Shown: in pieces, positions 2,439 to 64,000 of the stretch
Layout of the letters: every line of letters starts with the position of its first letter
Numbering within the stretch: the stretch's first letter is position 1
DNA from: Dromiciops gliroides
Lineage: Eukaryota; Chordata; Mammalia; Microbiotheria; Microbiotheriidae
DNA: 64,000 nucleotides
Direction of reading: 5' to 3'
NCBI RefSeq assembly: GCF_019393635.1
Contig: NC_057861.1
Span: 60,000,532 to 60,064,531, forward strand
Notes under the pieces: model-generated
What the model saw: the letters and a program-made list of their open reading frames with translations, nothing else
What the model was told of the DNA's origin: nothing
Databases searched by the model: none
Translations under genes and position numbers: made by a program

Positions 2439-2712
2439 AAGGCAGACTAGGCATACTCTAGGGTCTCTTGCAACACAGAGTCTATGATATAATGGAGGAA
2501 TAAGAGTCATGATTTGTTGGGGCTCAGGGAGAGGAAGGAGTAGGGGTCACTTACTGGGAAGAGGTCATGTCAGTGATGAGGACAAGCAAGTTTGGGTGGG
2601 GAGCTGGTTGGGGATGCTAAGGAGCTCAATCTGGGCTATATGGAGTCTACAGGGCCAGAGTTTTCTCCATGTCTGTCTTTGGTCTTGACCCTGGCCCCCA
2701 TGCTTTTGACAG

Positions 2713-7835
<5,123 letters not shown>

Positions 7836-14928: not shown

Positions 14929-15206
14929 TTATATCTCCTCTGCCTCTTGATCTAAATCTGTGAATATTAGCATTTGAATGTTTGCCCTTACTTTCCCAAA
15001 TGGAGTAACCTTTGTGAGAGAAGTCTCTATTAGCCTCTGTTTTAACCCTTCAAGGAAGGGAAGGATACAACATAAAACTCCTGCCACTATAATGAGAGTG
15101 GTGAGGATTGAGGCAGTGAAACCTTTCCATTTCCCAAACCAGGATTCCATCCATTCAGTCCAGGTGGTGTCAATCCCTGAATTTTTGCTAATTCCTCAGT
15201 CAGTAT
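14929..15206 (-). pseudogene. Provirus env, C-terminal part (membrane anchor and tail)
   Basis: The minus frame encodes ESWFGKWKGFTASILTTLII, then a hydrophobic span ending in Cys-Cys and a tail of about 40 residues, in the order of a gammaretroviral TM protein. It is cut from the rest of env by the 3.7 kb insertion at 15207. One frame change occurs near 15150. Confidence 0.85.
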
Positions 15207-15564
15207 TGTAACGATTGGAATAACGCCACCTGCTGGATACTTACTGTAGAAGAGTTCTGCCCATGAAGGGAAGGTCTTTGAGGGCAAGACCAGGAGTCAG
15301 GAAGTGACGCGGGCTAGTGGGAGGAGGAAGGAAGAGACTGGCGCTGACTCTGGCTCTCTTTCCTCTGGACTCTGGCGGAGAAGGGAGCTAGAAATGTGCT
15401 CTCCCTTTAATAGATAGGAATCTAGGCCTTTCTCTCTCTCTTTACCAAATTCTTATTCTCCTTAATAAATGCTTAAAAGTCTAACTCTTGCTAAAGCTTA
15501 TAATTTATTGGCGACCACTCATTAAATAGTTTAGACAGTTTAGCTAGAATTTTACCCCTTAACA
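15207..15564 (+). repeat. 5' LTR of the young element
   Basis: It starts TGTAACGATTGG and ends CCCTTAACA. AATAAA at 15464-15469 marks the R region. (CT)n and 'ccctttaatagatagg' lie just upstream. Confidence 0.93.
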
Positions 15565-15566
15565 GA

Positions 15567-15584
15567 TGGCTGACCACGAAGAGG
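15567..15584 (+). other. Candidate primer binding site (tRNA-Arg-like)
   Basis: TGGCTGACCACGAAGAGG starts two bases after the LTR. It resembles the complement of the 3' end of a tRNA-Arg, with one extra T and one other difference. The related word TGGCGACCAC also occurs inside the LTR (about 15510). tRNA assignment is inference. Confidence 0.5.
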
Positions 15585-15699
15585 AAAGCTAAACCTCAGT
15601 CTTCTGATCTTCTGGTTGGGTAAGAAATTTCCCCTACACTCTCCCTTTAACTGCTAAGTACTGGCGTACTGGCTGTGTTTTCCCTTTAAATTTTTTCGA

Positions 15700-16431
15700 A
15701 TGGACCTTTTAAACTCCCTAATTATCCTATTTTTGATTTTAGTCTGTTTAACCAGACAAATGGGAGATAAGATCATGTTAATGCTTTGTTTTTGTGGATT
15801 TTCTATTTTTCTTTTTATTTTTGTTAAAAGAGCCAGCAACTTACTCACACAAGGAAATATCTCTCCCTCTCCCAACCATGCTTTTTCAGAGAAACCTGAA
15901 GAGATTCCCGCAGCTTTTCCCAGTTCTAACAGTAATTGTTGCTTTAATTTTGCATGCCTAGAGGCAATGACCCACCCTCTAGAAGCTTTTAATCCCCTAG
16001 CACCTGGAGGCAAAGTGGGGGAAGAGGAATCCAGGCCTGAGTTCAAAATCAAGTCTGATTCAAATTGCCCTGGTCCCTCCCCTCCTCTCCAGACCCCACC
16101 CTCTACTCCTCCCATGGCCAAGCCCATTGCTTCCCCTGCCCGGGAAGTCCAGAGATCTGATGCACATGCTCAACTTTCTCTAACTACATTTGCAGATTCA
16201 GGCTCAGCCCTTCCCCAGCCTGGCTGTGCTTTTGAGACAATCTTAGAAAACCCTTTAAATTCCAGATATGCTCGTTTTGTTCTTAATTTTGCTAACCTGC
16301 TTTTGTCTTTAATTAGTAATCTTATAAAGCATTTGTATGGTGAAAAGGCTGACAGACAATATAGAGGGGTTAAAGAAGAAAAACTTAAGCCGAATAAGAA
16401 TGACAATCATCAACATAGTTCAAGACTCTGA
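15700..16431 (+). CDS. Unassigned 243-residue open frame of the young LTR element
   Basis: I do not recognise this protein. Residues 4-17 and 27-43 are strongly hydrophobic (SLIILFLILVCL; LMLCFCGFSIFLFIFV), suggesting two membrane spans or a signal anchor. A Pro/Ser-rich polar middle follows (about 50-175), then a hydrophobic stretch (about 193-212, FVLNFANLLLSLISNLI) and a basic, Asn/Lys-rich tail. No zinc knuckle, protease, polymerase or CX6CC motif is visible. The ATG is about 135 bases after the LTR, where gag would normally start. Start context is moderate (G at +4). It could be a gag remnant, an accessory gene or a captured host sequence; because the element is young, openness alone does not prove function. 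Confidence 0.5.
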   Translation: MDLLNSLIILFLILVCLTRQMGDKIMLMLCFCGFSIFLFIFVKRASNLLTQGNISPSPNHAFSEKPEEIPAAFPSSNSNCCFNFACLEAMTHPLEAFNPLAPGGKVGEEESRPEFKIKSDSNCPGPSPPLQTPPSTPPMAKPIASPAREVQRSDAHAQLSLTTFADSGSALPQPGCAFETILENPLNSRYARFVLNFANLLLSLISNLIKHLYGEKADRQYRGVKEEKLKPNKNDNHQHSSRL

Positions 16432-18564
16432 TTCTTTTGCCATGGAAGGGTATATATTTTACAGAAATGTAGAAGTAAGCAGCAAGGTATTGATATGAGT
16501 ATTGGGGATTTTAGATATCGGAATCAAAAGTGTTCTGAATTCACTCAAAGTAATAGTATCAGTTCAGAGGTTACATAGGATTTCTATGCTATTATATATA
16601 CATTTTGAAATTAATGGTATGGGTTTATTTTCGTAGAGATTTTCATGCATTTGAGATTGTGTTTTATACTTAGTTTCTAAAACAAAGAGAATATTTGTAA
16701 AAGCTTTTTATAGTCATGTGGTCCAGTTTATATTTTATAATACTCTTATTGATATTAAGTTCATATTCATTTAGATTTCCCTAGTTTGAATTTCATTGTC
16801 TTTTATTGTTCCACGTGTATCTTCTTCTATTCATTCATCTATCTAATTTTGAAACATGGTTTTGATTTCATAATACAATGTTAATTCTAGGAGTATTGTG
16901 CTCCCATATTCTGAGTTGTTTGTTTTTGTTATTTTTTCTCAACTGATTATTTGATCAAACTCTTTAAAGCATTTCCCTGGCAAATTGGTTGCCATGGCAA
17001 GTATAAATTGATTCTAGAAGTATTATTTTTGATAAGCATATTCCAAAAAAAAAAAAAAAGAGGGGAACATTTGTAAAAGTTTTCTTTTTTTCAAAAAAAA
17101 AGTTTTCTTTGAGATTCTGTTGTGCTTTAACTTATATTTAAATATGTTCAGATTTTTCACAAAAGTAATTGTATACTAAGTAAAAAAAAGGTATTATTTG
17201 AAATTGTTGCATAATTATATATTATATTCTGAGTCAAGATGTATTCACATTTTTTGCAATCATTTATTATCCTCAATTTTTAAATCCATATGAGACTTGG
17301 ATTATGGGAACTTATCATTTAAGACACTAATTGCCTTTATTCTGAGTTATCAGATGCCAGTTGGCCAAGATGCCATCCAATCACAAGAGGAATACATGCA
17401 AGAGCAGACACTGAACTGTCACATGAGGGGAGACATGCATGAAGTCAAGGTATGGCCGAGGGAACGGCTTTTGACTAATGTTGAGGTTGGATTCTCTTGG
17501 TTTAATATTTTATTTTATTTTTCCCCACAATATTGTACAGATGGCTGGAAGTATTCATCCCACCCATCTCACTTCTACACCTGGCTTCTATGCTCCCTCC
17601 TATATGCCTGATGCCATGGACATCTCAATCCCATGCATCTGATTAAGTCTGACTCAGTTTCCTCCAATATGTTCGGTGGCATGGACATATATTCCATCCA
17701 TCTATTTTAAGCCTGGCATACTGTATGGGCAGTACATATTGCTCAAGTGTGGGAATGCTCATATCCCATCATTTCTCTGTTCTTTTATGGTAACCCCCAT
17801 AATTATCTCAGGTGTCATGATAAATAACAGTGTTGAATTTGGCCTTGACATCTGTTACTAATTATATTAGATTTTAAAATTTCTCATAATGGCATGAGGA
17901 TAATTAGGCAGATGATGCAAAAAGTGATGAAACAAAGATAAAAAATTATTTTTAATAATTAATATCGCAGCAATTGTCTTCTCAATTACCCTCCATAAGG
18001 GGGGGACTATAGTAATATTATAATTTTAAAGAATGGTTCAATTTTTGTTTTATTATATGTTTCATGTGTAACAACTAAGATTCTGAATTCCCTTAGACAT
18101 GTTTTTGAGAACTTTCATTGTTTGATTTGATTATTGACAAAGCTATTTTAAAGTTGTGTTAAGCTCAATTTTGTAGGAAATTTTCCTGGCTGATTACCAG
18201 CATCCACACATCAACCCCTGAAAAGACTTCCATTCCACGACTACACCTAGAGGACATCTGAGAAAAGACTTTCAGAGACTTTAAATGAACAGTTTTGATT
18301 TGTTGTTTTTGTTGTTTTTTTCTCTTTCTGTTATAATATACACCATCTGTAACATGTATTCTCTGCAGAAGCCCTCCCTTTGCAAGACTAATGTCAAAGC
18401 GTCGGTTCATGAGGACAAAAAAAAAATCGCCCCTCTGGACAAAACTTTCCTCTCTTCCTTTTCTATATTGTTGTTCACATATTATTAGTTAGCAATAGTT
18501 ATTATATTCTTTTTACTGTTCCGTCAAGGAAACATTTTGTTTCTTGAGGAACAACAGGGGGGAC
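16432..18564 (+). other. AT-rich non-coding interior of the young element
   Basis: No long frame on the element's strand. Parts (17590-18564) recur in the minus copy at 63027-64000, and 17740-17860 and 18200-18560 resemble 21080-21490. A polypurine tract (about 18550-18564, 'acaacaggggggac') precedes the 3' LTR. Confidence 0.75.
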
Positions 18565-18922
18565 TGTAACGATTGGAATAACGCCACCTGCTGGATACTT
18601 ACTGTAGAAGAGTTCTGCCCATGAAGGGAAGGTCTTTGAGGGCAAGACCAGGAGTCAGGAAGTGACGCGGGCTAGTGGGAGGAGGAAGGAAGAGACTGGC
18701 GCTGACTCTGGCTCTCTTTCCTCTGGACTCTGGCGGAGAAGGGAGCTAGAAATGTGCTCTCCCTTTAATAGATAGGAATCTAGGCCTTTCTCTCTCTCTT
18801 TACCAAATTCTTATTCTCCTTAATAAATGCTTAAAAGTCTAACTCTTGCTAAAGCTTATAATTTATTGGCGACCACTCATTAAATAGTTTAGACAGTTTA
18901 GCTAGAATTTTACCCCTTAACA
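18565..18922 (+). repeat. 3' LTR of the young element
   Basis: Same length as the 5' LTR and no difference found by eye; AATAAA at 18822-18827. It is followed by the GTAT target copy. Confidence 0.93.
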
Positions 18923-18926
18923 GTAT

Positions 18927-19120
18927 CCTTAAGCCTTTCAAGGCTCTAGTTATTGAATCATCAGGGGCAGTATTATGTGGGATAAAGGTGCAGCATTGGC
19001 CATCCAGCATGACACACACTCCCCCTTTTTCTGCTAACATCATATCAAGGGCTATTCTGTTTTTCCAAGCCATTTTGCTAGTTGCAGCCAGTTGTTCAGA
19101 AATACTTTGTACCACATCCC
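18927..19120 (-). pseudogene. Provirus env, TM ectodomain (CX6CC region)
   Basis: The minus frame shows the heptad-rich segment followed by ALDMMLAEKGGVCVMLDGQC and a second Cys. This is the immunosuppressive-like segment and CX6CC motif of gammaretrovirus-type TM subunits. A stop separates it from the upstream SU frame, and the insertion follows. Confidence 0.87.
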
Positions 19121-19139
19121 TAATGTAACTGATGAACCT

Positions 19140-20166
19140 CTACTGGTTCCAATCTACATTTTTAGTTATGGTTACCCACTGTAGGAGAGATTCTGGCACA
19201 CCCCATGAGACTCCTATGCTGTCTAGGCAGATTGGAGCATCAGATGACCCTTTTTGCCTCTCTGGGCTGTGTTTCTTTCTTGATTTAGACTCAGATTCAG
19301 AGAAATGCTCAGATGCCATGGTAAAGGGGGTGGCCAGCCACACCAACCCACAAGTCCCAGCCCAGTTAGGGGGCAAGGTTGATCTTCCACCACAATAGGT
19401 CTGGTGGGGAAGGATCAGGGATGAAAAATCTACGGAGTTGTTCTCGGTTACTTCCCATGTTTGGACACAACTCATATTACCCAAGACCAGAAAACCTTCT
19501 CTCACCCATATGGAAAGACAGGCAGGATGGTTTCCTGTGACTCCAACAAAGGTGTGTATGATCTTTTCTGCTGTCCTTTTTATTACAGGGAAGAGTAGCT
19601 CCAAATCCCTGCAACTCTCATCCTTTGCCAACCCATTCTGGTATAATTGAAGGAGACACAGGAACCACTCCAGGCTAAAATCTGGACTTAGAGTATGGGC
19701 AGCTGGTCTTCCCAAAGCACTGACCCATTCCATCCGAGCATTTGAATCTCCAAACCCAGTCTCTGTCTCCACTGTCTGTCTCACATCCTTAACTTCAATG
19801 GCCTGTAACTCAGGAGTTTCAGGGTTTCCTAATTTCCCCTCTGGACTTGAAGAGGTTATTTCTGGAGTCTTAAAAGGATAGGGGGATGTAGGATCCATGG
19901 GATTTTTGAAGGAATATTCCTATTCTTCCTACAAGATCAGTTCTTCCTTCAGATGCCCATATACCAAATCCATATATTACAAAGGTCAGTCTATTTGGGT
20001 CACGTTGTTCTTTTTGATACTCATCTCCCTGGATACTTCCCTTAGAGTTATAAATTGGTTCTGGGCACATGTGTCTCTCATGATCTCTAATCCTCTGCTG
20101 TACCCCAAGATCATGGTTACACAGGGCGACTTTACAAGTATCAGATTCTACTGTTTGAACTGACAC
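19140..20166 (-). pseudogene. Provirus env, surface-subunit part
   Basis: Two overlapping minus frames (19140-19898 and 19870-20166) cover a Cys-containing, SU-like region directly upstream of the TM part. Similarity is judged from position and the weakly conserved Trp/Cys spacing. The frame change near 19880 and the stop near 19140 break it. Confidence 0.65.
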
Positions 20167-20486
20167 ATTCCTTTTTGTTGCATGTGGTGCACTGGAATGG
20201 ATTCAAGGGCATAACAGTACCCATTCACCATTCTGGTCCCAATAGTTAGTATAAAAAGGAGTGCAATGTGCCTTCTAGCAGGCCAGAGATGAGTCCTCAT
20301 TGCTCCTTCTTCCCCCCCCCCCCAGCCCCCATAATACCCATCCTTTTTGCTCCTCCAGTACTTGTTTGCCAGAGCAGCTACCACTACCCCAAAATGTTAC
20401 CTCCCTTCCCCCTTTTTGTACCAGCCTTGGTTTATTGTACATTAAAGTCTTTATAAACTTCACCCTCACTCCATCAGATTCCTTAT

Positions 20487-21075
20487 TCACTGCTCATGCT
20501 TTGGCTTTGGCTTTTCTTCTGGAAAAGGTGCCCCTTTTACTTGAGAGTAATCCCAATCAGGTTCCAACTTGTTTCTCTTCCAGGCTCTTATCAATACCCA
20601 GTCTCCAGGCTTAAATTGGTGAGCTGGAAACTTGAGAGGAGGAGTCTGGGCTAGAAGTCCCTTTTCTCGGAGTAAAGAAACAGGGGCAGAGAGGCCAGAA
20701 ATGTGTTCTCTGAGAAACATGTCTTTCATTTCTATTCTTGGGAACTTTGTTTCCCTTCCCAAGTAAGGATACCCAAATAACATCTCATATGGGGATATTT
20801 TTACTTCTTTCTTAGGGGTGGTTCTTATCCTAATTAGGGCTAATGGGAGACATTTAGTCCAGAGAAGTTTGGTTTCAAGCATTAATTTAGATATTTGCTT
20901 TTTTGATGTCTGGTTCACTTTTTCTACCTTCCCTGAGGAGGGAGCTTGACAAGGAGTATGAAAATCCCATCTTATTTCTAAAGCCCTCGTTATTGATTGC
21001 AGTTTGAGCAGTAAAGTGCGCCCCATTATCTGAGTCTATATTCTCCACCAGTCCATACCTAGGAATGATCTGTTC
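20487..21075 (-). pseudogene. Provirus integrase, core second half and C-terminal domain
   Basis: The minus strand encodes the core word DNGAHFTAQ (second catalytic Asp) and SSGKVEKVNQTSKKQ (third catalytic acid). The C-terminal KPGDWVLIRAWKRNKLEP domain follows. A frameshift near 20990 separates the pieces. Confidence 0.88.
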
Positions 21076-21494
21076 TGTGCTAGGCCACAGGTGGATGTCT
21101 CGAAACCATGAGATGTGGTATGATAACCTTTCCATAACATTTTCAGGTATCATGAATACATTACTAAATTTGGCTTTGATCCAGACACATGGTGGTAAGA
21201 AGTATTATAGATTTCATAACTACCTCAACCCTCTATTATATAAAGGAGGGAATGTAATGGAATGTATTAAATTTGATCAGTGACAATGCTATGCTAAGGT
21301 TTAGTAAAAAATCCAGCAATTCAAACAGTTAAAGAAGAAGAATCCAGCTTTCCAGACCAGAATCCAGCTTCCTCCTGAGGACATCTTACCACTCCAAGAA
21401 GACAAGAGAACTGAGAAAAGACTTCCAAAGACTTAATTATTTTTTACTGTTTCATCAAGGAACACCTGTTCCTTAGAAGAAACAAAGTGGGGAA

Positions 21495-22088
21495 TGTGAT
21501 GAAATAATGGGATTTAGCAGATACTCAAAGACCCACCTGGAGATTAATCAAGACTGATTGAACCAAGTGAGAGTAATTGACTGCTGATTAAGCCTACTTC
21601 AAGTTAATTGGATTGTAATCACACCTGGCTATCCCTTAAGAAGGTATTGTTCTCAGAAACTAGACTGTGAACTCAACTTGAGAATACCTTCAAAGACAAT
21701 GGATTTGGATGACACCAACCAATCACCTTGAAGCAGTGTGTAAGAACTGCCTCTGTTCCAGATCTATAAAAAAGCTTCCACAAACAGCTTGCTAAGGAAT
21801 TCCTGATTAAGACAGGCTGGTGAAGGAATTCCTGATTAAGACAAGCTGGTAGAGGAGTTCCTGATTAAGACAGGCTTGTTGAGGAGTTCCTGATTAAAGC
21901 AGGCTTGTGGGGGAGGACTTCAGGAAGAACCCAACCAAGCTGGAACTCTAGGCTAGGTAGGACTTCTTTTTCATAACCTTCTGAACTCTTTGTAAATATC
22001 TGTATGTTCTAATAAATGTTTAATGCCCAAAGACTGGTACTGAAGCTTCTGATTTAAGGCAACCACAATTTAGATTTTAAACATCACA
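21495..22088 (+). repeat. LTR (594 bases) of the integrase-interrupting element
   Basis: TGTGATGAAATAATGG to ACATCACA. TATAAAAAA at about 21765 and AATAAA at 22011-22016 fit a promoter/poly(A) layout. It is longer than its solo relative at 39603-40110 because of an internal tandem repeat. Confidence 0.88.
21786..21901 (+). repeat. 29-base tandem repeat, four copies, inside an LTR
   Basis: Units of the form 'gaggaattcctgattaagac' plus 'aggctggt' repeat four times between the TATA-like word and AATAAA. The relative at 39603 has only about one unit. Confidence 0.9.
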
Positions 22089-22092
22089 GTTC

Positions 22093-22302
22093 TAATGTCA
22101 GTTTAGTTACTACTTGGGAAGTAGCCTTTCCTGTGGGGAAAGCCTCGACCCATCCTGTCAGGTGATCCACCAAGACTAAGAGATATTTCAATTTACTTAT
22201 TGGTGGCATTTCTTTAAAATCTTCCTGCATGCTCTGGAATGGTCTCGGTCCCGGGGCCTGACCCCAGGTATTTCATTGACTTTTTACTTTGTTATTTATT
22301 TT
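22093..22302 (-). pseudogene. Provirus integrase, first half of core
   Basis: The minus frame encodes KLKYLLVLVDHLTGWVEAFP, around the first catalytic Asp region. Stops occur near 22290. Confidence 0.82.
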
Positions 22303-22968
22303 TCAGCAAACTATACAGCCCTCACTAATCTGCTTTGCAATAGTATAGATCCCAATGGATCCATACCATCTTAATATATCACACATAGTCTGTGCTCCCA
22401 AATGGTTCCCCTGATGCCAAGTGCCCATGAGTTCTCTCATGATGGCTCTGTTAACCATTTCCCTCCCAACAGGAAGTACCCATCTCCCTCTATCTGTGCA
22501 TTGAGCCCCCACCTCCCTGAGTTTTCCAAACACATGTACTATTCCAAAGACATACTTTGAATCAGTATATATAGTTCCTAAGTCATTGGCCAAGCATTTT
22601 AATGCTTGATTCAAATAATATAGTTCACAAGTTTGTGCTGACCAGTCATTTGGCAGCCTTCCACTCTCTATGACCATAGCATGGTTCCCATCAATTATAA
22701 CATAACCATTATGTCTCCTTCCCTCCACCACCCTGGAGGACCTATCTATGAACAAGTGTTTCCCTTGAGTAGATGGATATTCTTGTAAGTCCCCCAGAAC
22801 TTTTGTTTGATAATCTATAAGGTTCAGACAATCATGTTCTAATGGATCATTGTTATCACTAACACCATGCCATAGAAAAGATGAGGGGTTCAGACAGTTT
22901 TCCACAGTGAGTACCAAGTCATCCTTTTCTAATAAAATTGCCTCATATTTCAAAATTCTAGAATCCAT
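22303..22968 (-). pseudogene. Provirus RNase H and integrase zinc-binding domain
   Basis: A 221-codon frame. FIDRSSRV, QTCELYYLNQAL and YTDSKYVFGIVH carry the RNase H acidic residues. GTWHQGNHLGAQTMCDILRW to GCIVC is the integrase HHCC finger. The frame ends at a stop right after the finger. Confidence 0.88.
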
Positions 22969-22986
22969 AAGCCATCTCCCTGCCTT

Positions 22987-41007: not shown

Positions 41008-44000
41008 GTGAGTGGGACCACTTGGACCAAGAGCTGGGGAGCTCAGTGGGTAGATGAGCTAGGATGCTAAATGGACAAAGTATTGGGTGGGGGGAGTGAG
41101 TAAGGAATCTGAGCAGTTGAGAAATTAGAGCAGGACACAAAAAGGATGAGGAACTAAAAAGACCTTCATGAGGAAAGGGTAACCTAGGTTTCCTGTGCTC
41201 CCAGAAGTCTGAGTGATCCAGATAGAGAAAGGGTCTCTCTGGAATTATTAATGCCCAGAAAATGCTTAGGAGGGACACAAAGAAGGTGACTGATTTCTCA
41301 GTGTGATGTGGAGACACAAGGAAGGAGAGAGCTCTCAATCTGCTCCTCCAGGGGCAGGAGACAACAGGGATCTCACTTCCCTTGCTGTGGATAGCAGGCA
41401 TTTATTTATGTTGCCTGAGAGCATATCAGCTATTTTGGTCACTATGATACAATGTTAATTCCTGGTGACTGTGGGTCTAATAAAATCCCCATATTTTTCT
41501 CAGACAAACAAGTTCCAAATGCATTTAACTATACTGGAACCTAGTCAATATAATCCAGAATAGAGGTGTCAAACATTCAGCTAACATTCCTAAAATGCAA
41601 TAGCTAAATGCAATTGGGAATTATTCAATAAATTGATAGGAATACAATAGAATATGGATAATATTAATATATGGTTTTCTAAGTCAATATACTACCCATA
41701 TGTATACCACTAGACCAGAGGATTTAGTGTTGAAGGGGACTTTAGAAATCACAACTCTAAATTTCTCATTTTATATATATGTGTGTGTATTATAGATATA
41801 ATATTATAGATACATATATATATACATATACATATGGAAGCTGAGACTTAGAGAGGTCAAATGACTTCCCCAAGATCATGGAGGAAGCAAAACCAGATGT
41901 GCTGACTCCAAATACATTATTTTTTCACTAGAGCATACTGTCTCACAGGACATCATGAGAGTCCTTGACTAATGCCTCATTAAAATCCAGATATATCATA
42001 GATTACAACACTACATTACAAAGATCATACACTATAACCAGGTGGGATTTATACTAGGAATGCAGAGCTGGTTCAATATTAGGAAAACTATCAGCATAAT
42101 TGACCACATCAATAACAAAACCAATAAAAATCATATGATTATATCAATAAATGCAGAAAAAGATTTTGACAAAACACAGCATCCATTGCTATTAAAAACA
42201 TGAGAAATCATGGGAATTGATGGAGTCTTTCTTAAAATAATAATTTTAAGTGGTATCTATCTAAAATCAAGAGTAAGCATTATCTGTAACAGGGATAAAC
42301 TTGAAGCCTTCCTTATTAGATCAAGGGTAAAGCAAAGATGTCCATTACCAACATTATTTGGAACTCAAAATCTTACAAAATGTTGAAAATTATCTTTACA
42401 TGTAATTGGGAAAAATAAAATACTATTTTAAAAATAAGTAAATTAGGGGAGCATAGAAAATGTACATGTCAGATCTATGGGCAAGGGAAGAGTTTATGAC
42501 AAATAAGAGTTAGAGAGGATTATATGAAGTAACATTGATCATTTTAATTATGTGAAATTAAAAAGGGTTTGCACAAACAAAACTAATGCAGCTAAAATTA
42601 GAAGTAAAATAGGAAACTGAGGTGGGGGAGGGATTTAAAGCAAGCTTCTCAACTAAAGGTCTCATTTTTCAAATATATGGGCAACAGGACCAAATTTACA
42701 AAAAAAAATAAGAGTTATTGCCCAATTGAGAAATGGTCAAAGGATAGGAACAGGCAGTTTTCAGAAGAAATCAAAGTTATCAATAATCACATGAAAAAAA
42801 TCTCTAAGTCACTATTGGTTAGAGAAATGCACATTAAACAACTCTGAATTACTGCCTCACATATATAAGATTGGCTAACATGATGGAAAAATTATAAATG
42901 CTAGAGGAGATGTAGAAAAATCGGGGCTCTAATGCACTGTGAACTAGTCCAACCACTCTGGAAAACAATTTGGAGCTATGGCCAAAGAGCTATAAAACTG
43001 TGCGTACCTTTTGACCCAGCATTGCCACTACCAAATCAATATCCCAAAGAGATGAAAGAAAAGGGAAAAGGACCTGTTTGTACCAAATATTTATAGCAGC
43101 TTTTTTTGTGATGGCAAAAAATTGGAAATTGAGGGGATATCCATCAATAGCGCAATGGCTGAACAAGTTATTATATATGGTTGTGATGGAATGCTATTGT
43201 GTTATAAAAATTCATGAGGACGACTCACAAGAAATCATAAGGATGATTTCAGAAAAACCTTGGAAGAGTTATATGAACTCATGAAAAGTGAAGTGAGCAG
43301 AGCCAGGAGAATATTGTATACAGTAACAGCAATAGTGTAAGGATGATCAACTATGAAAGAATTAGCTACTCTAATCAAGACAATGATCCAAGACAATTCC
43401 AAAGGAGCCATGATGAAAAATGCTGTCCATCTCCAGAGAGAGAACTGATAAACTCTGAATGCAGGTTGAAACATACTTTTTTAAACTTCATTTTTATTGT
43501 TTTGTTTTGTTTGTGTTTTCTTTTGCAACAAGACCAATATGAAAATATGCTTTGTATGACTTCATATGTACAGTCGATATAAAACTGCTTGCCTTCCCAA
43601 GGAGTAAGAGATGGAAGGGAGAATTTGGAATTTAAATTTTTTTTAAATAATTGTTCAAAATTTTTATATATGATTAGAAAATATTTAACAAAATAAATAA
43701 AAATATTTTTTAAAAAAACAAAGAAAGAAATCCAGATAAATCCTTAGTATGGCATTCCCTAATCTACTCACCTTGTAACCTTTTCCATAGAGAAAATGAA
43801 GTAAATTTGGCATGACATGTTCCTTGTAAGACTTGCTGGCTTTTAATGATCACTGCTGGCCCTTCTTTAATGCACATAAACCTGTAACGATTAGAATGAC
43901 GCTACCTACTGGAGACTGACTGTAGGAAAGTTCTGCCATGAAGTGAAGGTCTTTGAGGGCAAGACCAGGAGTCTTTTCTTTGGCATCAGGAAGTGACGCT

Positions 44001-47000
44001 GGCTAGTGGGAAGAAGAAGGAAGAGACTGGCGCTCTGTCTCACTCTCTTTCCTGAGGACTCCAGTGGAGAAGGGAGCTAGAAATGCGCTCTCCCTTTAAT
44101 AGATAGGAATCTAGGCCTTTCTGTCTCTCTTTATCAAATTCTTATTCTCCTTAATAAATGCTTAAAAGTCTAACTCTTGCTAAAACTTATAATTTATTGG
44201 CGACCACTCATTAGATATTTTAGATAGTTTAGCTAGAATTTTAGCCCTTAACAAACCTTAGCTTTAATCATATAATAGAGAATTTTTCCTGGAACAGAAG
44301 TCAAACTCCCAATCCTGTAGTTTAAAAAATTTACTCCCTTACCATTTTGAAAGATCAGGACATTTGATTATTTCTGGCTGCAAGTCATTATCCAAAATTT
44401 TTGTTACCTGCCAGCTCTTGTCAGTGTCATGGGACCTGTAGTTATTTTAAGTCTGGAGACTTAAACTCACTGAGTATTTTGGATTTCAACTCACCATTTG
44501 CCATTTTCATCGCATCCTTACAAGTCTAAATATCAATCTCCCTTAGAAAACAGAAATTAACAAGACCTCAGTAACTGTCTCTCTTCTTTATCTGTATCAT
44601 CATCTCAGATCTTTCCAGAAGTTTGATGACAGTTAATGTGGCACAGTAGAAAGCATGCTTAATTTATTATGAGAGGAATACAGTTCAAATTTAGGCTTTA
44701 CCACTTATTACCTGTAGGAACTTGAATAAGTCACTTCAATTCTCTCAGATTTGGTTTCCTCAGCAAAATGAGATTTTTTGGGTTTTTTTTTTGGGGGGGG
44801 GGGTAAGGCAATTGTGGTTAAGTGACTTGCCCAGGGTCACACAGCTACTAAGTGTGTAAAGTGTCTGAGGCCAGATTTGAACTCAGGTCCTCCTGAATCC
44901 AGAGCCGGTGCTCTATCCACTGCACCACCTAGCTGCCCCAAAATGAAATTTTTTGAATAAACGAATCAATGAATTATTAAATGAAATAACATCTATAAAG
45001 TATTTACTATGTGCTGAGCAGTGTGCTAAGAGCTGCACATGCAAATATGAACAAGTAAGATTATCCTTGTCTTCAAGGATCTTACATTCTCACTGGGGAA
45101 GACAACACATATGAGAGTGACAAGAGAGAGTATTTCAGACAGGAAATTCAGAGGGATGGTGGTTGGAGTTGTACAAAAAGTAGTTGGCAGGGGGCAGCTA
45201 GGTGGCACAGTGGATAAAGCACTGGCGCTGGATTCAGGAGAACCTGAGTTCAAATCTGGCTTCAGACACTTGACACTTACTAGCTGTGTGACCCTGGGCA
45301 AGTCACTTAACCCTCATTGCCCTGTCTAAAAAAAAATTTTTTTTAAGTAGTTGGCCGATCTCTTCCAGGAATGGTAGCACTGATTTGATTCATGGTAATA
45401 GATTATTCCTAAGGTATCTTCCAGTTCTAAATTTCAGATCCTATGATTCCTTCTCCATTTTTTCTTCTTCACTGTCACACTCATGAACCTTAGTTCCAGC
45501 CCTCTAAACTGTCCTTGGTTTTGCATCTATCACATATCTTCCTTCCACTGGCCTCTGTGCACTATGTTTTACCTTGTAGATAGTGCTTCTGCATCTCCAT
45601 TTCCTCAATGAGAAAAAAAATCACTATAGGCTCTCCTTCTAGCCTTTTTCTTTTGCACATGGGCAAGACAAAAGTGAACTAGTAAGAAATACAGAAGACA
45701 GGATCTTCCAGAAAGTGTATCAAGCAGGGGGCAATGAGGATTAAGTGACTTGCCCAGGGTCACACAGCTGGTAAGTGTCAAGTGTCTTAGGCCAGATTTG
45801 AACTCAGGTTCTCCTGAGTCCAGGGCCGGTGCTTTATCCACTGTGCTATTTAGCTGCCCCTGCAGGGAGAAATTTTCAATAAAATATTGAAAAATTCAAA
45901 AACAAAATTTTAAAAAAGTGCATCTGGGTGGTACAGTGAGTAGAGTACTAGGCCTGGAGTGAGGAAGACCTGAGTTCAAATCTGGCCTCAGACATTCACT
46001 AGCTGTGTGACCCTGGACTTAACTTAAATCTAATTCAGTTTCCCCATCTGCAAAATGTGGATAATAATAGTTCCTTCCTCTCAGGGTATTTGCAAGAATA
46101 AAATGAAATATTTGTAAAGGATTTTGCAAACCTTAAAGCTTTATATAAATGTTAGCTAGCCTCTGTAGCTCTTTGGAACTGATATTGTTCTTTGAAGTTC
46201 ATCAAAGTTTGACTTAGCCTTTTAATGTTGTTTTTAATCATATTTGTATTTATCATTATCTTTCTTTGTTCTGCATCACTTCAGGATCATTCTGTGTCTC
46301 TGAAATCCTCGTTTTAATAATTTCTTTTGTTGCAGTAATAGTCCATTATATTTTTGTGCCATAATTTATTGAATTGATCCCCAATCAATCACAACCTATT
46401 TTGTTTCTATTTTTTTGCTATCACAAAGTTTTGTGACTAATAGTTTGTTATATAATAGGACCTTTCTATAAGCCATTGACCTCTTTGGTGTATGTGCCCC
46501 GTGGTGGGACCATTGGGTTAAAAGAGTATGAACAGGGGGCAGCTAGGTGGCGCAGTAGATAAAGCACTGGCCTTGGATTCAGGAGTACCTGAGTTCAAAT
46601 CCAGCCTCAGACACTTGACACTTAACTAGCTGTGTGACCCTGGGCAAGTCACTTAACCCTCATTGCTCTGCAAAAACAAAAAACAAACAAACAAAAAAAA
46701 CGAGTATGAACAATTTAGTGAGTTTTCTTGACCCATTCAAAATTGCTTCTCAGAACAGTTAAACCAATTCACAATTCCACCAACAATGTACTCTATGAGT
46801 TTGTTTGCCTTCTCACAGTTACTATAACATTTATTGCTTCCATTTTTAATCTTATTTTCTAATTTGATGGGTAAAAGGAAGAGAATTTGAAACACAAAGT
46901 TTTTTAAATGGATGTTAAAATTATTTTTACATGTAATTGGGGGAAAATAAAATTCTAAATTAACTAAGTTGACAGGGAGAAACCTCAAAGTTGTTTTAAC

Positions 47001-59000: not shown

Positions 59001-60188
59001 TCCTTTGATATCTAAAATCTGTAAGGCTCTGTGTATGGAAAGGGAGGTCCATCCTTGCCCTGGTCTACATCTCTATGCAGACTATTTCTCTATCCAAAAC
59101 AGTGTTCAGTTCTGGATATCACATTTTATGAAAAAATACCGATGAAATATAATATGTTCAGAAAAGGGTAACTAGGATGATGAAGGGACTACGGATAATT
59201 CTGTAAGAACATTAACTGAAGAAGCAGATGGAGGAATTAATGGTAGTTGTCTTCAAGTGATGGAAGGGCTGACAAATGAAGAGGGATTCGACTTGTTTGA
59301 GGTACAAGAGAGCATAACCAGAAGTGATGAATGGAAATTACAGAAGGCAGATTTGGAGTTGATGTTAAAAGAAAATATTTCCTAACAGACCTAGCTGCCC
59401 CTCATTAATTATTAACAGATCAGAGTTGATCGACACACTCAGGAGCACCTGCTCCTCCAATAGCATAGGTAGTGCAGTGGATAGAGCACCGGCCCTGGAG
59501 TCAGGAGGACCTGAGTTCAAGTCCGGCCTCAGACACTTAACACTTACTAGCTGTGTGACCCTGGGCAGGTCACTTAACCCCAATTGCCTCACTAAAAAAA
59601 AAAAAAATTAAATAAAAATTAAAAAAAAGAAAAGAAAAGAAAAGGCTGAAGGACCACTTCTTGAGGGATCTTGTAGCATTGATTCCTGTCCAGTTAAGGG
59701 TTGTTCTAAAAAGCCCCAGTGGTCCCTTGCAGTTATGAGATTTTATCATTCTGTTAAGATTTTGGAGGAAGAATGGACAGAACCAAGAGTTGTTTTGACA
59801 CTGAAAGAAGGTAGTGACAGTGACTAGGAAGTTCTGGGGGCAGAAGAACATTAAGGATCTTGGTCTGAACTTCCTACCTGGTCCAGAGCCTTACCCTGCT
59901 CCCCCTTCTTTGAACAGGAAGCCAAGTACCTACATCTCTGCCATCCTGGAGTTAAGTGCCCTTTCAATGATTCGTTTAAAACAAGTCATTCTACACTGGG
60001 ATAGACTGTACTTCCTCACCAAACAAGGGAGACGCTTCTCCCAGGCCTGCCGCCTGGTGCATGACTTCACAGATGCTGTTATCCAGGCCCGGAAACAGGT
60101 CCTTGCTGAACAGGGTCCTGAAGCTTTCCTTAAGAACAAGGGTAAAAGCAAGACCATGGACTTCATAGATGTGCTGTTGCTGGCCAAG
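40792..60188 (+). CDS. CYP4F: Cytochrome P450 family 4F gene B, 5' part (coding exons 1-6)
   Basis: Six exons (216, 145, 54, 128, 122, 271 bases) splice into one open frame of 312 codons from an ATG. The product begins with a hydrophobic ER signal anchor, then CFPQPP (hinge) and the N-terminal half of the P450 fold, including the C-helix WSRHRR that contacts haem. The remaining exons (I-helix to C-terminus) are not found before 64000 and must lie to the right, because an LTR element enlarges the following intron. It has the same strand and same splice phases as gene A, so the pair is a tandem duplication. The MLP start, HPDYI and KDDLIYGF words recall the CYP4F22 branch, but I would not name an orthologue without a tree. 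Confidence 0.93.
41008..41990 (+). other. Gene B intron after coding exon 1, unassigned part
   Basis: No repeat of clear identity except TA/TG-rich 41765-41835 and a MIR-like end at 41836-41940. Confidence 0.4.
42000..43735 (+). mobile_element. L1 LINE, rearranged ORF2 pieces and 3' end
   Basis: 42003-42330 matches the RT region ('gattatatcaataaatgcag', 'aaagattttgacaaaacaca'). 42640-43300 covers the ORF2 C-terminus ([20 protein letters not shown]), and the 3' UTR follows. An internal piece is lost. Confidence 0.87.
43883..44253 (+). mobile_element. Solo LTR of the young-element family
   Basis: TGTAACGATTAG to CCCTTAACA, 371 bases. AACC is duplicated at 43879-43882 and 44254-44257. It has 13 bases ('ttttctttggcat') absent from the LTRs at 15207 and 18565, plus scattered substitutions, so it is an older or different subfamily. 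In gene B intron 1. Confidence 0.93.
44254..44770. other. Gene B intron, unassigned
   Basis: 44620-44770 looks like a MIR-type SINE ('gtggcacagtagaaagcatg', 'gtaggaacttgaataagtca'). Nothing else recognised. Confidence 0.4.
44775..44939 (-). mobile_element. tRNA-derived SINE
   Basis: Minus copy with a T/G-rich tail; flanked by 'caaaatgaaatttttt'-like words. Confidence 0.9.
45190..45336 (+). mobile_element. tRNA-derived SINE
   Basis: Flanked by 'aagtagttggc' on both sides. Confidence 0.92.
45725..45860 (-). mobile_element. tRNA-derived SINE
   Basis: Minus copy, 'caatgaggattaagtgactt' to 'tagctgcccc'. Confidence 0.9.
45915..46155 (+). mobile_element. Older tRNA-derived SINE with long 3' part
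   Basis: The head resembles the young SINE but is diverged. The tail 'cagtttccccatctgcaaaa' to 'aaccttaaagctttatataa' is MIR/Mar-like. Confidence 0.75.
46230..46965. mobile_element. L1 fragments around a SINE
   Basis: The minus-strand L1 3' region 46290-46745 ('gtagtccattatatttttgt'-like words) is split by a SINE. A + strand L1 3' UTR scrap follows at 46870-46960. Confidence 0.6.
46534..46700 (+). mobile_element. tRNA-derived SINE
   Basis: Flanked by 'gagtatgaaca'; tail (AAAC)n. Confidence 0.92.
47321..47465 (+). CDS. CYP4F: CYP4F gene B coding exon 2
   Basis: Acceptor 'catttatag', donor 'gtatga'. The exon encodes [20 protein letters not shown], then [20 protein letters not shown] and IRPLTSAS, the A-helix and first beta-sheet. 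Phase 0 in, phase 1 out. It lies 6.3 kb downstream of exon 1, across an intron full of L1 and a solo LTR. Confidence 0.92.
47710..47880 (+). mobile_element. tRNA-derived SINE
   Basis: Flanked by 'tcaatactctgtcttc'. 245 bases downstream of gene B coding exon 2. Confidence 0.92.
47881..50215. other. Gene B intron 2, first half, largely unassigned
   Basis: Holds MIR-like pieces at 48730-48930 and 49200-49420 and an old 'accaggcactgtgctaagta' repeat at 48990. No exon seen. Confidence 0.4.
50218..51330 (-). mobile_element. L2/CR1-family LINE
   Basis: Minus frames near 50853-51116 read [36 protein letters not shown] and similar, as in L2 RT. The C-terminal and 3' parts continue to 50218. Broken frames. 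Confidence 0.78.
51335..51590 (+). mobile_element. SINE plus adjacent SINE tail
   Basis: One copy at 51335-51487, then a second tail ('tgtaaccctgggcaagtcac' to the A-run) at 51534-51590. Confidence 0.88.
51591..52390. other. Gene B intron 2, LINE-like purine-rich sequence
   Basis: Words such as 'gaagcagtctgtagacagag' and 'gaatgggaatgatagaggag' suggest a continuation of old L2-type sequence. No gene. Confidence 0.35.
52395..52600 (+). mobile_element. Older SINE (MIR/Mar-like)
   Basis: 'gagcagtaggtagagttctg' to 'ttgtgaggatccaatgagat', diverged. Confidence 0.6.
53017..53420 (+). repeat. Degenerate minisatellite upstream of gene B coding exon 3
   Basis: The word 'catgtct' or 'tatgtct' recurs every 20-45 bases (53093, 53131, 53178, 53201, 53282, 53308 and on). 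Often with 'aagcc' before and 'a-g-g' after. Very diverged. Confidence 0.5.
53440..53530 (+). repeat. (TA)n/(TG)n microsatellite
   Basis: TATA/TGTG-rich sequence ending 35 bases before the coding exon 3 acceptor. Confidence 0.85.
53563..53616 (+). CDS. CYP4F: CYP4F gene B coding exon 3
   Basis: A 54-base exon between 'ctcaacag' and 'gtgagt', encoding [17 protein letters not shown] with split codons at both ends. The size equals the small exon that CYP4F genes have at this place. A SINE begins 34 bases after its donor. Confidence 0.9.
53651..53808 (+). mobile_element. tRNA-derived SINE next to a 5' splice site
   Basis: Flanked by 'agaaataacaccagg' on both sides. It starts 34 bases after the gene B coding exon 3 donor. 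Confidence 0.93.
54125..54252 (+). CDS. CYP4F: CYP4F gene B coding exon 4 (C-helix)
   Basis: Acceptor 'ccccag', donor 'gtgagc'. The exon reads [20 protein letters not shown], then [17 protein letters not shown] and CANIMH. W-S-R-H-R is the CYP4 form of the C-helix WxxxR motif whose Arg holds a haem propionate. Confidence 0.94.
54511..54660 (+). mobile_element. tRNA-derived SINE
   Basis: Slightly diverged copy ('catctaggtggcacagtgga'), 260 bases after gene B coding exon 4. Confidence 0.88.
54661..55225 (+). other. Gene B intron between coding exons 4 and 5
   Basis: Nothing recognised except the (CT)n run 55196-55218 that serves as the pyrimidine tract of the next acceptor. Confidence 0.5.
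55226..55347 (+). CDS. CYP4F: CYP4F gene B coding exon 5
   Basis: The acceptor AG at 55224-55225 follows a (CT)n pyrimidine tract; the donor is 'gtgagt'. The exon encodes [20 protein letters not shown], then [20 protein letters not shown] and two bases of Glu. This is the D/E-helix region. Confidence 0.93.
55350..56255 (+). other. Gene B intron after coding exon 5, unassigned
   Basis: No repeat or exon recognised. Confidence 0.35.
56266..56512 (+). repeat. (TA)n/(TG)n/(CA)n-rich block
   Basis: Mixed TATA, TGTG and CACA runs over about 245 bases, giving spurious long frames on the minus strand. Confidence 0.9.
56515..56765 (+). mobile_element. Older, longer SINE
   Basis: 'cacatagctaggtagtatag' through 'aaaggaaatggcaaactgct' to 'attccaacatgattgaacaa', the long SINE type with MIR-like middle. 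Confidence 0.8.
57125..57352 (-). mobile_element. Older, longer SINE
   Basis: Minus copy of the same long type ('cagttgtgtctgactcttca' at its 3' end). Confidence 0.8.
57785..58610 (-). mobile_element. L1 LINE ORF2 fragment (between endonuclease and RT)
   Basis: The minus frame 58287-58586 reads [20 protein letters not shown] and [20 protein letters not shown], the L1 linker region. RT-start sequence follows towards 57785. Confidence 0.88.
58611..59100. other. Gene B intron, unassigned
   Basis: Probably further LINE-flank sequence; no feature recognised. Confidence 0.3.
59105..59800 (+). mobile_element. L3/CR1-type LINE 3' end, split by a SINE
   Basis: 'agttctggatatcacatttt' to 'gttaaaagaaaatatttcct', then after the SINE 'ggctgaaggaccacttcttg' to 'gtcccttgcagttatgagat'. 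It ends just before gene B coding exon 6. Confidence 0.65.
59460..59610 (+). mobile_element. tRNA-derived SINE
   Basis: Copy with 'cagtggatagagcaccggcc' and 'cacttaacacttactagctg'; first bases diverged. Confidence 0.88.
59918..60188 (+). CDS. CYP4F: CYP4F gene B coding exon 6
   Basis: Acceptor 'tgaacag', donor 'gtaaat'. The exon reads [20 protein letters not shown] and ends [13 protein letters not shown]. It is the partner of gene A 2713-2983. The upstream intron ends are also alignable, as are parts of the next intron. Confidence 0.94.
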
Positions 60189-60535
60189 GTAAATGTGCGG
60201 TAGGTGAGTGGAGAATGTGAAGGCTGGCAGGCTTGGGGAAGGGAGGGGAAGTGTTTAGTTGTGTACAAAGGGCTTCAGTGTCTGTGGGGAGAGAGTCATG
60301 GAGACCAGGGTAGAGGGCCCCCAGTAAAATCATTCTTGACTTTTGCTATCTTCTTCAAAGGCTTTTTTCCCCTCCTCAGAGTAGCATTTACAGCATCAGA
60401 TTGAAAAGGGTTTGTGTGAAGAAGGGAAAGGACTAATTCTGTTTCTTTCCTTCTGCTGGTGTGGAATAGTCCTCCAAGTTGGTTCCTGGTATTACAAAGG
60501 AGTCTGCAATAATAGTTAAGAATAACAGCTAACAT

Positions 60536-62655: not shown

Positions 62656-63026
62656 TGTTAAGGGTTAAAATTCTAGCTAAACTGTCTAAAATATCTAATG
62701 AGTGGTCGCCAATAAATTATAAGCTTTAGCAAGAGTTAGACTTTTAAGCATTTATTAAGGAGAATAAGAATTTGGTAAAGAGAGAGAAAGGCCTAGATTC
62801 CTATCTATTAAAGGGAGAGCACATTTCTAGCTCCCTTCTCCGCCAGCGTCCCCAGGAAAGAGCCCCAGAGTCAGCACCAGTCTCTTCCTTCCTCCTCCCA
62901 CTAGTCTGCGTCACTTCCTCCCCGCCAAAGAAAAGACTCCTGGTCTTGCCCTCAAAGACCTTCGCTTCATGGGCAGAACTCTTCTACAGTAAGTATCCAG
63001 CAGGTGGCGTCATTCCAATCGTTACA
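62656..63026 (-). repeat. 3' LTR of the right-edge element
   Basis: + strand reads TGTTAAGGG to CCAATCGTTACA. 'tttattaagg' (minus AATAAA) lies near 62752. Confidence 0.92.
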
Positions 63027-64000
63027 GTCCCCCCTGTTGTTCCTCAAGAAACAAAATGTTTCCTTGACGGAACAGTAAAAACAATATAATAACTATTGCT
63101 AACTAATAATATGTGAACAACAATATAGAAAAGGAAGAGAGGAAAGTTTTGTCCAGAGGGGCGATTTTTTGTCCTCATGAACCGACGCTTTGACATTAGT
63201 CTTGCAAAGGGAGGGCCTCTGCAGAGAATACATGTTACAGGTGTATATTATAACAGAAAGAGAAAAAAAAACACAACAAAAACAACAAATCAAAACTGTT
63301 CATTTAAAGTCTCTGAAAGTCTTTTCTCAGATGTCCTCTAGGTGTAGTCGTGGAATGGAAGTCTTTTCAGGGGTTGATGTGTGGATGCTGGTAATCAGCC
63401 AGAAAAATTTCCTACAAAATTGAGCTTAACACAACTTTAAAATAGCTTTGTCAATAATCAAATCAAACAATGAAAGTTCTCAAAAACATGTCTAAGGGAA
63501 TTCATAATCTTAGTTGTTACACATGAAACATATAATAAAACAAAAATTGAAACATTCTTTAAAATTATAATATTACTATAGTCCCCCCTTATGGAGGGTA
63601 ATTGAGAAGACAATTGCTGCAATATTAATTAATAAAAATAATTTTTATCTTTGTTTCATCACTTTTTGCATCATCTGCCTAATTATCCTCATGCCATTAT
63701 GAGAAATTAAAAAATCTAATATAATTGGTAACAGGTGTCAAGGCCAAATTCAACACTGTTATTTATCATGACACCTGAGATAATTATGGGGGTTACCATA
63801 AAAGAACAGAGAAATGATGGGATATGAGCATTCCCACACTTGAGCAATATGTACTGCCCATACAGTATGCCAGGCTTAAAATAGGTGGATGGAATATATG
63901 TCCATGCCACCGAACATATTTGAAGAAACTGAGTCAGACTTAATCAGATACATGGGATTGAGATGTCCATGGCATCAGGCATATAGGAGGGAGCATAGAA
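62656..64000 (-). mobile_element. Another copy of the young LTR-element family, cut by window end
   Basis: A minus-strand LTR (62656-63026, 371 bases, TG...CA) is followed by internal sequence that is the reverse complement of about 17590-18564, including the polypurine tract. By eye divergence is a few percent. It carries the 'cttttctttggc' segment like the solo LTR at 43883. It lies in the gene B intron after coding exon 6, antisense to the gene. Its other end and any 243-codon frame are outside the window. Confidence 0.92.

What the first reader, a model, noticed from the sequence alone, without database searches (positions are those of the whole stretch)
15207..18922. Recently inserted, non-autonomous retrovirus-like element with no recognisable viral genes
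The two 358-base LTRs show no difference by eye and the GTAT target copies are intact, so insertion was recent. The 3 kb interior lacks gag, pol and env motifs but keeps a primer site and polypurine tract. This is the layout of a parasite of another retrovirus, like the MaLR or ETn types in other mammals, but in class I style (4-base duplication). I do not recognise the family as described.
Basis: partly seen in the sequence, partly recalled or inferred. Interest (0 to 1): 0.75.

Follow-up and report, generated by a model that had tools for sequence, protein, structure and literature searches.

The report
High-copy gene-poor retrovirus-like parasite family
This is a likely recent copy of a jumping DNA family, with about 4,760 copies in this one genome, that has the two ends of a retrovirus but no recognisable retrovirus genes, and so probably spreads by borrowing the proteins of another retrovirus in the same genome.

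Summary
The two 358-bp LTRs are identical (0 of 358) and flanked by GTAT copies. The copy is not a lone oddity: in the window's own genome 4,764 places match the 5' junction (LTR end plus primer site) and 4,761 the 3' junction, with 0 matches to reversed control patterns. Of 100 listed 5' junctions 71 could be paired; 65 of 71 enclose 2,931-3,010 bp (median 2,988), and no gag-pol member was found. It is an amplified non-autonomous class I-style family, not a one-off deletion.

It matches no Pfam family. Hints that the frame is kept are weak, and amino-acid changes run at the neutral rate (omega 0.98). Diversity is lowest just before the 3' LTR.

Most likely mechanism: mobilisation in trans by a class I retrovirus. 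A candidate helper, unproven, is a high-copy family whose open frame ends in an MLV-type integrase tail fused to an OTUD3-like domain.

The parts
15203..15206 (.). left target-site copy GTAT
15207..15564 (+). 5' LTR, 358 bp, TG...CA
   Evidence: identical to the 3' LTR over 358 bp
15464..15469 (+). AATAAA poly(A) signal in the LTR (same in the 3' LTR at 18822-18827)
   Evidence: sequence; function inferred
15508..15518 (+). TTGGCGACCAC inside U5: resembles the start of a tRNA-Arg primer site
   Evidence: sequence; tRNA recalled
15567..15585 (+). primer-binding-site-like TGGCTGACCACGAAGAGGA, imperfect match (two extra bases) to the 3' end of tRNA-Arg (UCG/CCG, recalled)
   Evidence: TGGCTGACCACGAAGAGG in 13 of the 16 interiors printed; L016 and L017 carry variants, L019 lacks the region
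15700..16431 (+). ORF, 243 aa here, 291-293 aa in most other copies read; two predicted N-terminal helices in a hydrophobic stretch, proline-rich middle, and a tail that in some copies recalls a CCHC knuckle with Y in place of H
   Evidence: no Pfam match
18065..18564 (+). least diverse block of the interior (mean pairwise 1.1-1.5% against up to 5.5%)
   Evidence: 13 copies
18556..18563 (+). short polypurine tract AGGGGGGA before the 3' LTR
18565..18922 (+). 3' LTR, 358 bp
18923..18926 (.). right target-site copy GTAT
62656..64000 (-). second copy of the family: 371-bp 3' LTR 62656-63026 and interior from 63027, running off the window; the whole copy in L021 has identical LTRs and an ATAT duplication
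43883..44253 (+). LTR of the family without an adjoining interior (solo), 87.9% identical, AACC duplication

Best explanation
This is a likely recent member of a retrovirus-like family with about 4,760 proviral junctions in this genome that encodes no recognisable Gag, Pol or Env and is therefore probably copied in trans by the proteins of another class I retrovirus. Shown: identical LTRs, 4-bp duplication, a near-constant interior of about 3.0 kb in the copies measured, no recognisable retroviral genes. Inferred: the LTR drives an RNA ending at the AATAAA; helper Gag packages it through cis signals, for which the leader and the low-diversity last 500 bp are the candidates; a tRNA-Arg primes reverse transcription; a class I integrase inserts it with a 4-bp duplication. 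The 292-aa frame may be translated, but its amino-acid sequence is not measurably constrained. The candidate helper, also inferred, is the class I family whose open frame ends in an integrase tail fused to an OTUD3-like domain.
For: LTRs 0 of 358 different, GTAT duplication. 16 LTR pairs: 10 substitutions in 5,752 sites, 9 pairs without substitutions (one of these, L025, has gaps); 12 of 16 show an exact 4-bp duplication. 4,764 5' and 4,761 3' junctions, reversed controls 0 and 0. 65 of 71 paired copies have interiors of 2,931-3,010 bp; the 7,467-bp one carries an insertion of about 4.5 kb in a family copy; the 6,735-bp one spans another family copy's junctions (positions). 20 of 20 junction-chosen copies carry the same ORF region after the leader. 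No Pfam match to gag, pol or env in the pieces tested. 14 interiors differ by 2.7% on average, but a copy's own LTRs only by 0.17%, so most variation arose in replicating source lineages. MLV-type integrase tail in a high-copy family whose best 150 scored places are identical over 243 aa.
Against: No helper was linked by sequence: the 1.5 kb of the integrase-OTU insertion that I read shares no DNA with the element, and its LTRs, primer site, gag and most of its open frame were not seen. The primer site is imperfect. 11 of 15 LTR-chosen and 15 of 20 junction-chosen copies keep the frame, more than a useless frame might be expected to. Of 100 listed 5' junctions 29 stayed unpaired (the 3' list held exact matches only), so a rare full-length member could have been missed; 4 of the 16 measured copies lack an exact duplication.
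Confidence: 0.82

Rival explanations
1. The element is a semi-autonomous family: the 292-aa protein (two N-terminal hydrophobic helices, proline-rich middle, tail that recalls a nucleocapsid knuckle) is a shortened or replaced Gag, or an accessory membrane protein, that helps its own RNA.
For: Frame open in 15 of 20 junction-chosen and 11 of 15 LTR-chosen copies. Indels shared by two or more copies are multiples of three in 3 of 4 cases in the frame (33 copies against L022) and in 2 of 27 in the leader and rest (12 copies against L022); Fisher P = 0.008, but on unequal sets of copies. No indels at runs of five or more bases in the ORF (66 sites) against 36 distinct in the rest (244 sites), P = 0.0001. 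Pairwise dN/dS of codons 61-180 was 0.45-0.59 in an early estimate.
Against: With equal copy sets the shared-indel contrast is 1 of 1 against 2 of 27, P = 0.11. N:S = 128:54 in 26 intact copies against a neutral 2.41:1, omega 0.98. The ORF's middle is the most diverse part of the interior. Run-matched indel depletion at shorter runs is not significant (P = 0.13 and 0.42). The knuckle-like cysteines are complete in 9 of 30 sequences and the histidine in 0 of 30. No Pfam match, and no solved-structure match better than E 0.79. AlphaFold2 mean pLDDT 37. L009 has identical LTRs yet four private frameshifts.
Confidence: 0.2
2. A simple internal deletion of a known full-length retrovirus that happened to be copied, with the full-length parent still present.
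For: TG...CA LTRs, primer site and purine tract are retained.
Against: Among 71 pairs only three exceed 3.4 kb: 6,735 spans another family copy (positions), 7,467 holds an insertion, and 14,853 shares its 3' junction with a normal pair. No tested piece of the interior matches gag, pol or env. LTR lengths 358 and 371 fit none of the seven? clades with a stated LTR length in PMC11334065 exactly; the nearest is 373 bp for MEBrv 5, a 7.8-kb class II clade (sequences not compared).
Confidence: 0.12
3. An old, inert element whose LTRs look identical through gene conversion.
For: Gene conversion between LTRs is known in general (established knowledge, no call).
Against: 8 of 16 pairs are fully identical and a ninth differs only by gaps, while LTRs of different copies differ from one another (92-98.6% to the window's); 12 of 16 keep exact 4-bp duplications.
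Confidence: 0.04

Closest known systems
ETn elements mobilised by MusD (mouse, class II); described in passages of PMC10089650
   Same: LTR element without retroviral genes, high copy, moved in trans by a coding relative
   Different: class I-style 4-bp duplication; no sequence-related helper found; carries a 292-aa frame
Non-autonomous ERVK-like families of the deer mouse, e.g. Pman_ERV2_4.24 (PMC10089650, passages seen)
   Same: most abundant lineage-specific ERVs without obvious coding capacity; there the region most conserved between helper and parasite lies just before the 3' LTR, which is also the least diverse block here
   Different: class II; there a related helper group (mysTR) was identified
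MEBrv 3, amplified env-less ERV of dasyurid marsupials (PMC11334065; abstract, sections 7 and 10 and passages seen)
   Same: very high-copy, recently active LTR element
   Different: 7.3 kb with gag, pro and pol, 469-bp LTR, class II; that screen counted ERVs containing core retroviral genes, so it would probably not register a family like this one
VL30 (mouse, class I non-autonomous; recalled, nothing seen)
   Same: class I LTR element packaged by a related retrovirus
   Different: recalled only; no comparison run

Membership tests
LTR retroelement / endogenous retrovirus | two LTRs with TG...CA ends and a target-site duplication | tested here: met
   12 of 16 copies with an exact 4-bp duplication
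LTR retroelement / endogenous retrovirus | tRNA primer site just inside the 5' LTR and polypurine tract before the 3' LTR | tested here: inconclusive
   both present as sequence; primer site imperfect against a recalled tRNA-Arg, tract only 8 purines
Class I (ERV1) elements | 4-bp duplication | tested here: met
   also 6 of 9 further LTRs
Class I (ERV1) elements | gamma-like gag/pol sequence | tested here: not met
   none detected in the pieces tested; class I is therefore a style, not a proven ancestry
Non-autonomous ERV family (ETn-like) | many full-length copies with uniform interior and no coding machinery | tested here: met
Non-autonomous ERV family (ETn-like) | sequence-related autonomous helper | tested here: inconclusive
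   none among 71 pairs; the 1.5 kb of the integrase-OTU insertion read shares no DNA
MaLR / ERV-L | 5-bp duplication (recalled) | tested here: not met
   duplications found are 4 bp
MEBrv 3 (PMC11334065) | 469-bp LTR, gag-pro-pol | tested here: not met
   358/371-bp LTR, no gag-pol in the pieces tested

The most novel reading that the evidence does not exclude
The genome runs a split retrovirus: a pol family fused to a captured host deubiquitinase, a gag-only family, and this gene-poor family that keeps one translated membrane-protein frame, each high in copy number and complementing the others in trans.
Probability: 0.1. Interest if true: 0.85.

Novelty: new member of a known kind. Interest (0 to 1): 0.5.

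Why it matters
Non-autonomous retroviral families show what a retroviral RNA needs in cis. This one has thousands of junctions, a near-constant length and a sharp diversity gradient, so the required sequences should be mappable by comparison alone. Gene-based ERV screens such as the one in PMC11334065 would probably not register it, so ERV load in such genomes may be under-counted. The search for its helper turned up a high-copy open frame in which a retroviral integrase tail is fused to an OTUD3-like deubiquitinase domain, which looks like a captured host gene.

Tried and rejected
Gag-only family as helper or parent: the Gag_p30 search (best 150 of 3,388 candidates scored) shows many open frames of 631 or 637 aa, but the one copy read (L059) has other repeats and a Lys-type primer site (recalled), shares no DNA beyond a 20-base chance match and no convincing protein similarity (best E 1.9) with the element; rejected as a relative.

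The 7,467-bp copy as an autonomous member: rejected, because it is a family copy with an insertion of about 4.5 kb.

The CCHC-like tail as proof of a nucleocapsid: rejected (histidine in 0 of 30, cysteines complete in 9 of 30). Purifying selection on the whole protein: not supported by N:S counts, although an early pairwise estimate with crude site counting gave 0.63-0.93, below 1 mainly through codons 61-180. Structure prediction was uninformative. No homologue of the frame in the large protein collection (795 candidates, none at E 0.1), Pfam or solved structures (best E 0.79). Rfam and tRNA scans of the window gave nothing.

Rows dropped: 15 of the 30 loci lie on the minus strand and were not turned by my script, so searches used the 15 plus-strand ones; L019 and L025 (deleted or broken), and in places the near-duplicate L012, were left out of interior comparisons; L070 did not align from the start codon and was left out, but counts as not intact.

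Not obtained: a count of all LTRs, a genome scan for tRNA-Arg primer sites, LTR ages of the 20 junction-chosen copies and the ends of the integrase-OTU family.

'Tandem' for the 3,362-bp pair and 'most' for the lost cysteine were withdrawn.
Full report
Observation. The element at 15207-18922 is real. Its LTRs are 358 bp and differ nowhere, they begin TG and end CA, and GTAT stands on both sides. The interior is 3,000 bp. A primer-site-like stretch follows the 5' LTR after two bases and a short purine tract precedes the 3' LTR. Pfam finds no gag, pol or env in the long ORF or in nine further ORF pieces.

Context. The element lies, in opposite orientation, inside an older class I ERV: an Env piece (TLV_coat) in 18849-19112, an MLV-type integrase piece in 20490-21035 (below Pfam's cut-off) and RNase H in 22306-22986, all on the minus strand. 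Cytochrome P450 pieces lie at 2621-3127 and 59805-60200. The window belongs to a held genome of 3.30 Gb in 17 contigs.

A family, not a single relic. The first LTR search scored 40 of 2,141 candidates, all shown at 97% identity or more, two of them the element's own LTRs. I read 20 regions, most of them around these hits. Besides the window element, 15 LTR-interior-LTR copies were measured: 13 have interiors of 2,973-3,015 bp, L019 has 2,325 and L025 has 1,313. Twelve of the 16 show an exact 4-bp duplication, as do 6 of 9 further LTRs. LTR pairs differ at 10 of 5,752 sites, 9 of 16 pairs at none (L025 among these has gaps). With recalled mammalian rates of 2.2-4 x 10^-9 per site per year the mean age is 0.2-0.4 million years, and a pair identical over 358 bp is younger than about 1-2 million years at 95%. 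The sample was picked mostly by similarity to this LTR, so it leans to young copies.

Genome-wide count. The 27-base 5' junction occurs 2,426 + 2,338 times with up to two mismatches, the 31-base 3' junction 2,447 + 2,314 times, and the reversed control patterns 0 times. Only the first 100 places of each were listed, all exact and all on contig C1. Of 100 5' junctions, 71 pair with a 3' junction within 15 kb. Of these, 65 enclose 2,931-3,010 bp (median 2,988). The other six are 2,645, 2,747, 3,362, 6,735, 7,467 and 14,853 bp. The 6,735 spans the junctions of another family copy in the opposite orientation, so it looks nested. The 7,467 is a family copy with an insertion of about 4.5 kb. The 14,853 shares its 3' junction with a normal pair and is a mis-pairing. 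The other three were not read. 29 of 100 5' junctions stayed unpaired, perhaps because their 3' junctions are not exact. No member carrying gag and pol was found.

The open frame. ORF 15700-16431 gives 243 aa here. In most other copies read the frame continues to 291-293 aa. A protein search scored 150 of 8,846 candidates, all without stops, but that list is best-first and favours intact copies. Two samples not chosen by the ORF are fairer: 11 of 15 LTR-chosen copies with the start of the ORF, and 15 of 20 junction-chosen copies, taken as every fifth of the 100 listed. Intact copies exist; the window copy ends early. Indels shared by two or more copies within the frame are multiples of three in 3 of 4 cases (33 copies against L022); in the leader and the rest of the interior they are so in 2 of 27 (12 copies against L022). 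Fisher's P is 0.008, but the copy sets differ; on the same 12 copies the contrast is 1 of 1 against 2 of 27, P = 0.11. So the case for a kept frame is suggestive only. Against a needed protein stand four results. In 26 intact copies, nonsynonymous to synonymous variants are 128:54, and the neutral expectation from the non-coding interior is 2.41:1, so omega is about 0.98 (P = 0.94). The ORF's middle is the most diverse part of the interior. Run-matched indel depletion is significant only at runs of five or more bases. L009, whose LTRs are identical, carries four private frameshifts. I therefore treat the frame as carried along and perhaps translated, not as a proven gene. The N-terminus holds two predicted helices in a hydrophobic stretch, in a model of very low confidence (mean pLDDT 37). 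The tail recalls a nucleocapsid knuckle, but the histidine is present in 0 of 30 sequences and the three cysteines in 9 of 30 (7 of the 15 intact junction-chosen copies).

Where constraint seems to lie. Mean pairwise diversity of 13 interiors falls from 5.5% at 16065-16314 to 1.1% at 18315-18564, with a second low stretch at 17315-17814 (1.7-1.8%). In the deer mouse, the block just before the 3' LTR is what non-autonomous ERVs share with their coding relatives (PMC10089650, passages). Recombination could also cause such a gradient; this was not tested.

Helper candidates. The insertion in the 7,467-bp copy led to L080, whose open frame joins an MLV-type integrase C-terminus (PF18697, E 2e-11) to an OTU domain (PF02338, E 4e-14; best solved structure OTUD3, 4bou, E 2.7e-58). 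In the genome, the best 150 of 3,775 candidates, one of them L080 itself, are 100% identical over these 243 aa, and 125 of the 150 lie in an open frame of 1,392 aa (my count). The list is best-first, so it shows how many identical copies exist, not how uniform the family is. The frame upstream of these 243 aa was not read; that it is pol is inferred. This looks like a young, high-copy class I family with a captured host gene. A second family carries an open gag of 631 or 637 aa in many of the 150 places scored; in the one copy read, L059, gag stands between repeats about 3.34 kb apart, which leaves no room for pol, and its ends differ from the element's.

Novelty. Non-autonomous ERV families are a known kind (ETn, deer-mouse ERVK derivatives; passages). 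The dasyurid survey PMC11334065 (abstract, sections 7 and 10 and passages seen) lists eight clades; its Table 3 gives lengths of 7 to 9.5 kb and LTRs of 281-486 bp where stated, and it counted ERVs containing core genes. None is a 3.7-kb element; sequences were not compared. Literature searches listed no paper whose title or abstract start describes this family, but several showed only part of the papers found (20 of 30, 15 of 77 and 8 of 13), and repeat libraries were not available. I file it as a new member of a known kind. For the OTU fusion, searches (8 of 38 listed; 4 of 5 listed) showed no paper on such a fusion by title or abstract start.

Noticed in passing
L080:3-731 (G000:C1:50503002-50503730) and the other places: A class I ERV family whose open frame (1,392 aa in 125 of the 150 best places) ends in an OTUD3-like deubiquitinase domain fused after an integrase tail: an apparent captured host gene; the best 150 of 3,775 candidates are identical over 243 aa.
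   Followed up: partly
L059 and the places with 631- or 637-aa open frames: A separate LTR-like family with an intact Gag_p30-type gag and no room for pol in the one copy read; two pairs of hits on C6 are spaced 3,374 and 3,388 bp, close to the 3,341-bp repeat spacing of L059.
   Followed up: partly
window 18849-22986, minus strand: Older class I ERV (env, integrase and RNase H pieces) in which the element is nested in opposite orientation.
   Followed up: partly
window 62656-64000 and L021: Second copy of the same family, minus strand, with a 371-bp LTR variant (a 15-bp insertion and further changes) but a 95.6% similar interior.
   Followed up: yes
window 15508-15518: Inside U5 stands TTGGCGACCAC, a cleaner match to a tRNA-Arg 3' end (recalled) than the actual primer site about 57 bases downstream; it may be a former primer site taken into the LTR.
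   Followed up: no
L009, L025 and L079 (ORF region): Several single-base frameshift indels, nearly all private to one copy; in L009 the LTRs are identical. Either assembly errors or copies made from a defective source.
   Followed up: partly
window 2621-3127 and 59805-60200, plus strand: Two pieces about 57 kb apart that match the same part of the cytochrome P450 profile, perhaps a tandem gene cluster.
   Followed up: no
interior 15565-18564 across 13 copies: Diversity falls about five-fold from the ORF's middle to the 3' end; selection on cis signals and recombination were not told apart.
   Followed up: partly
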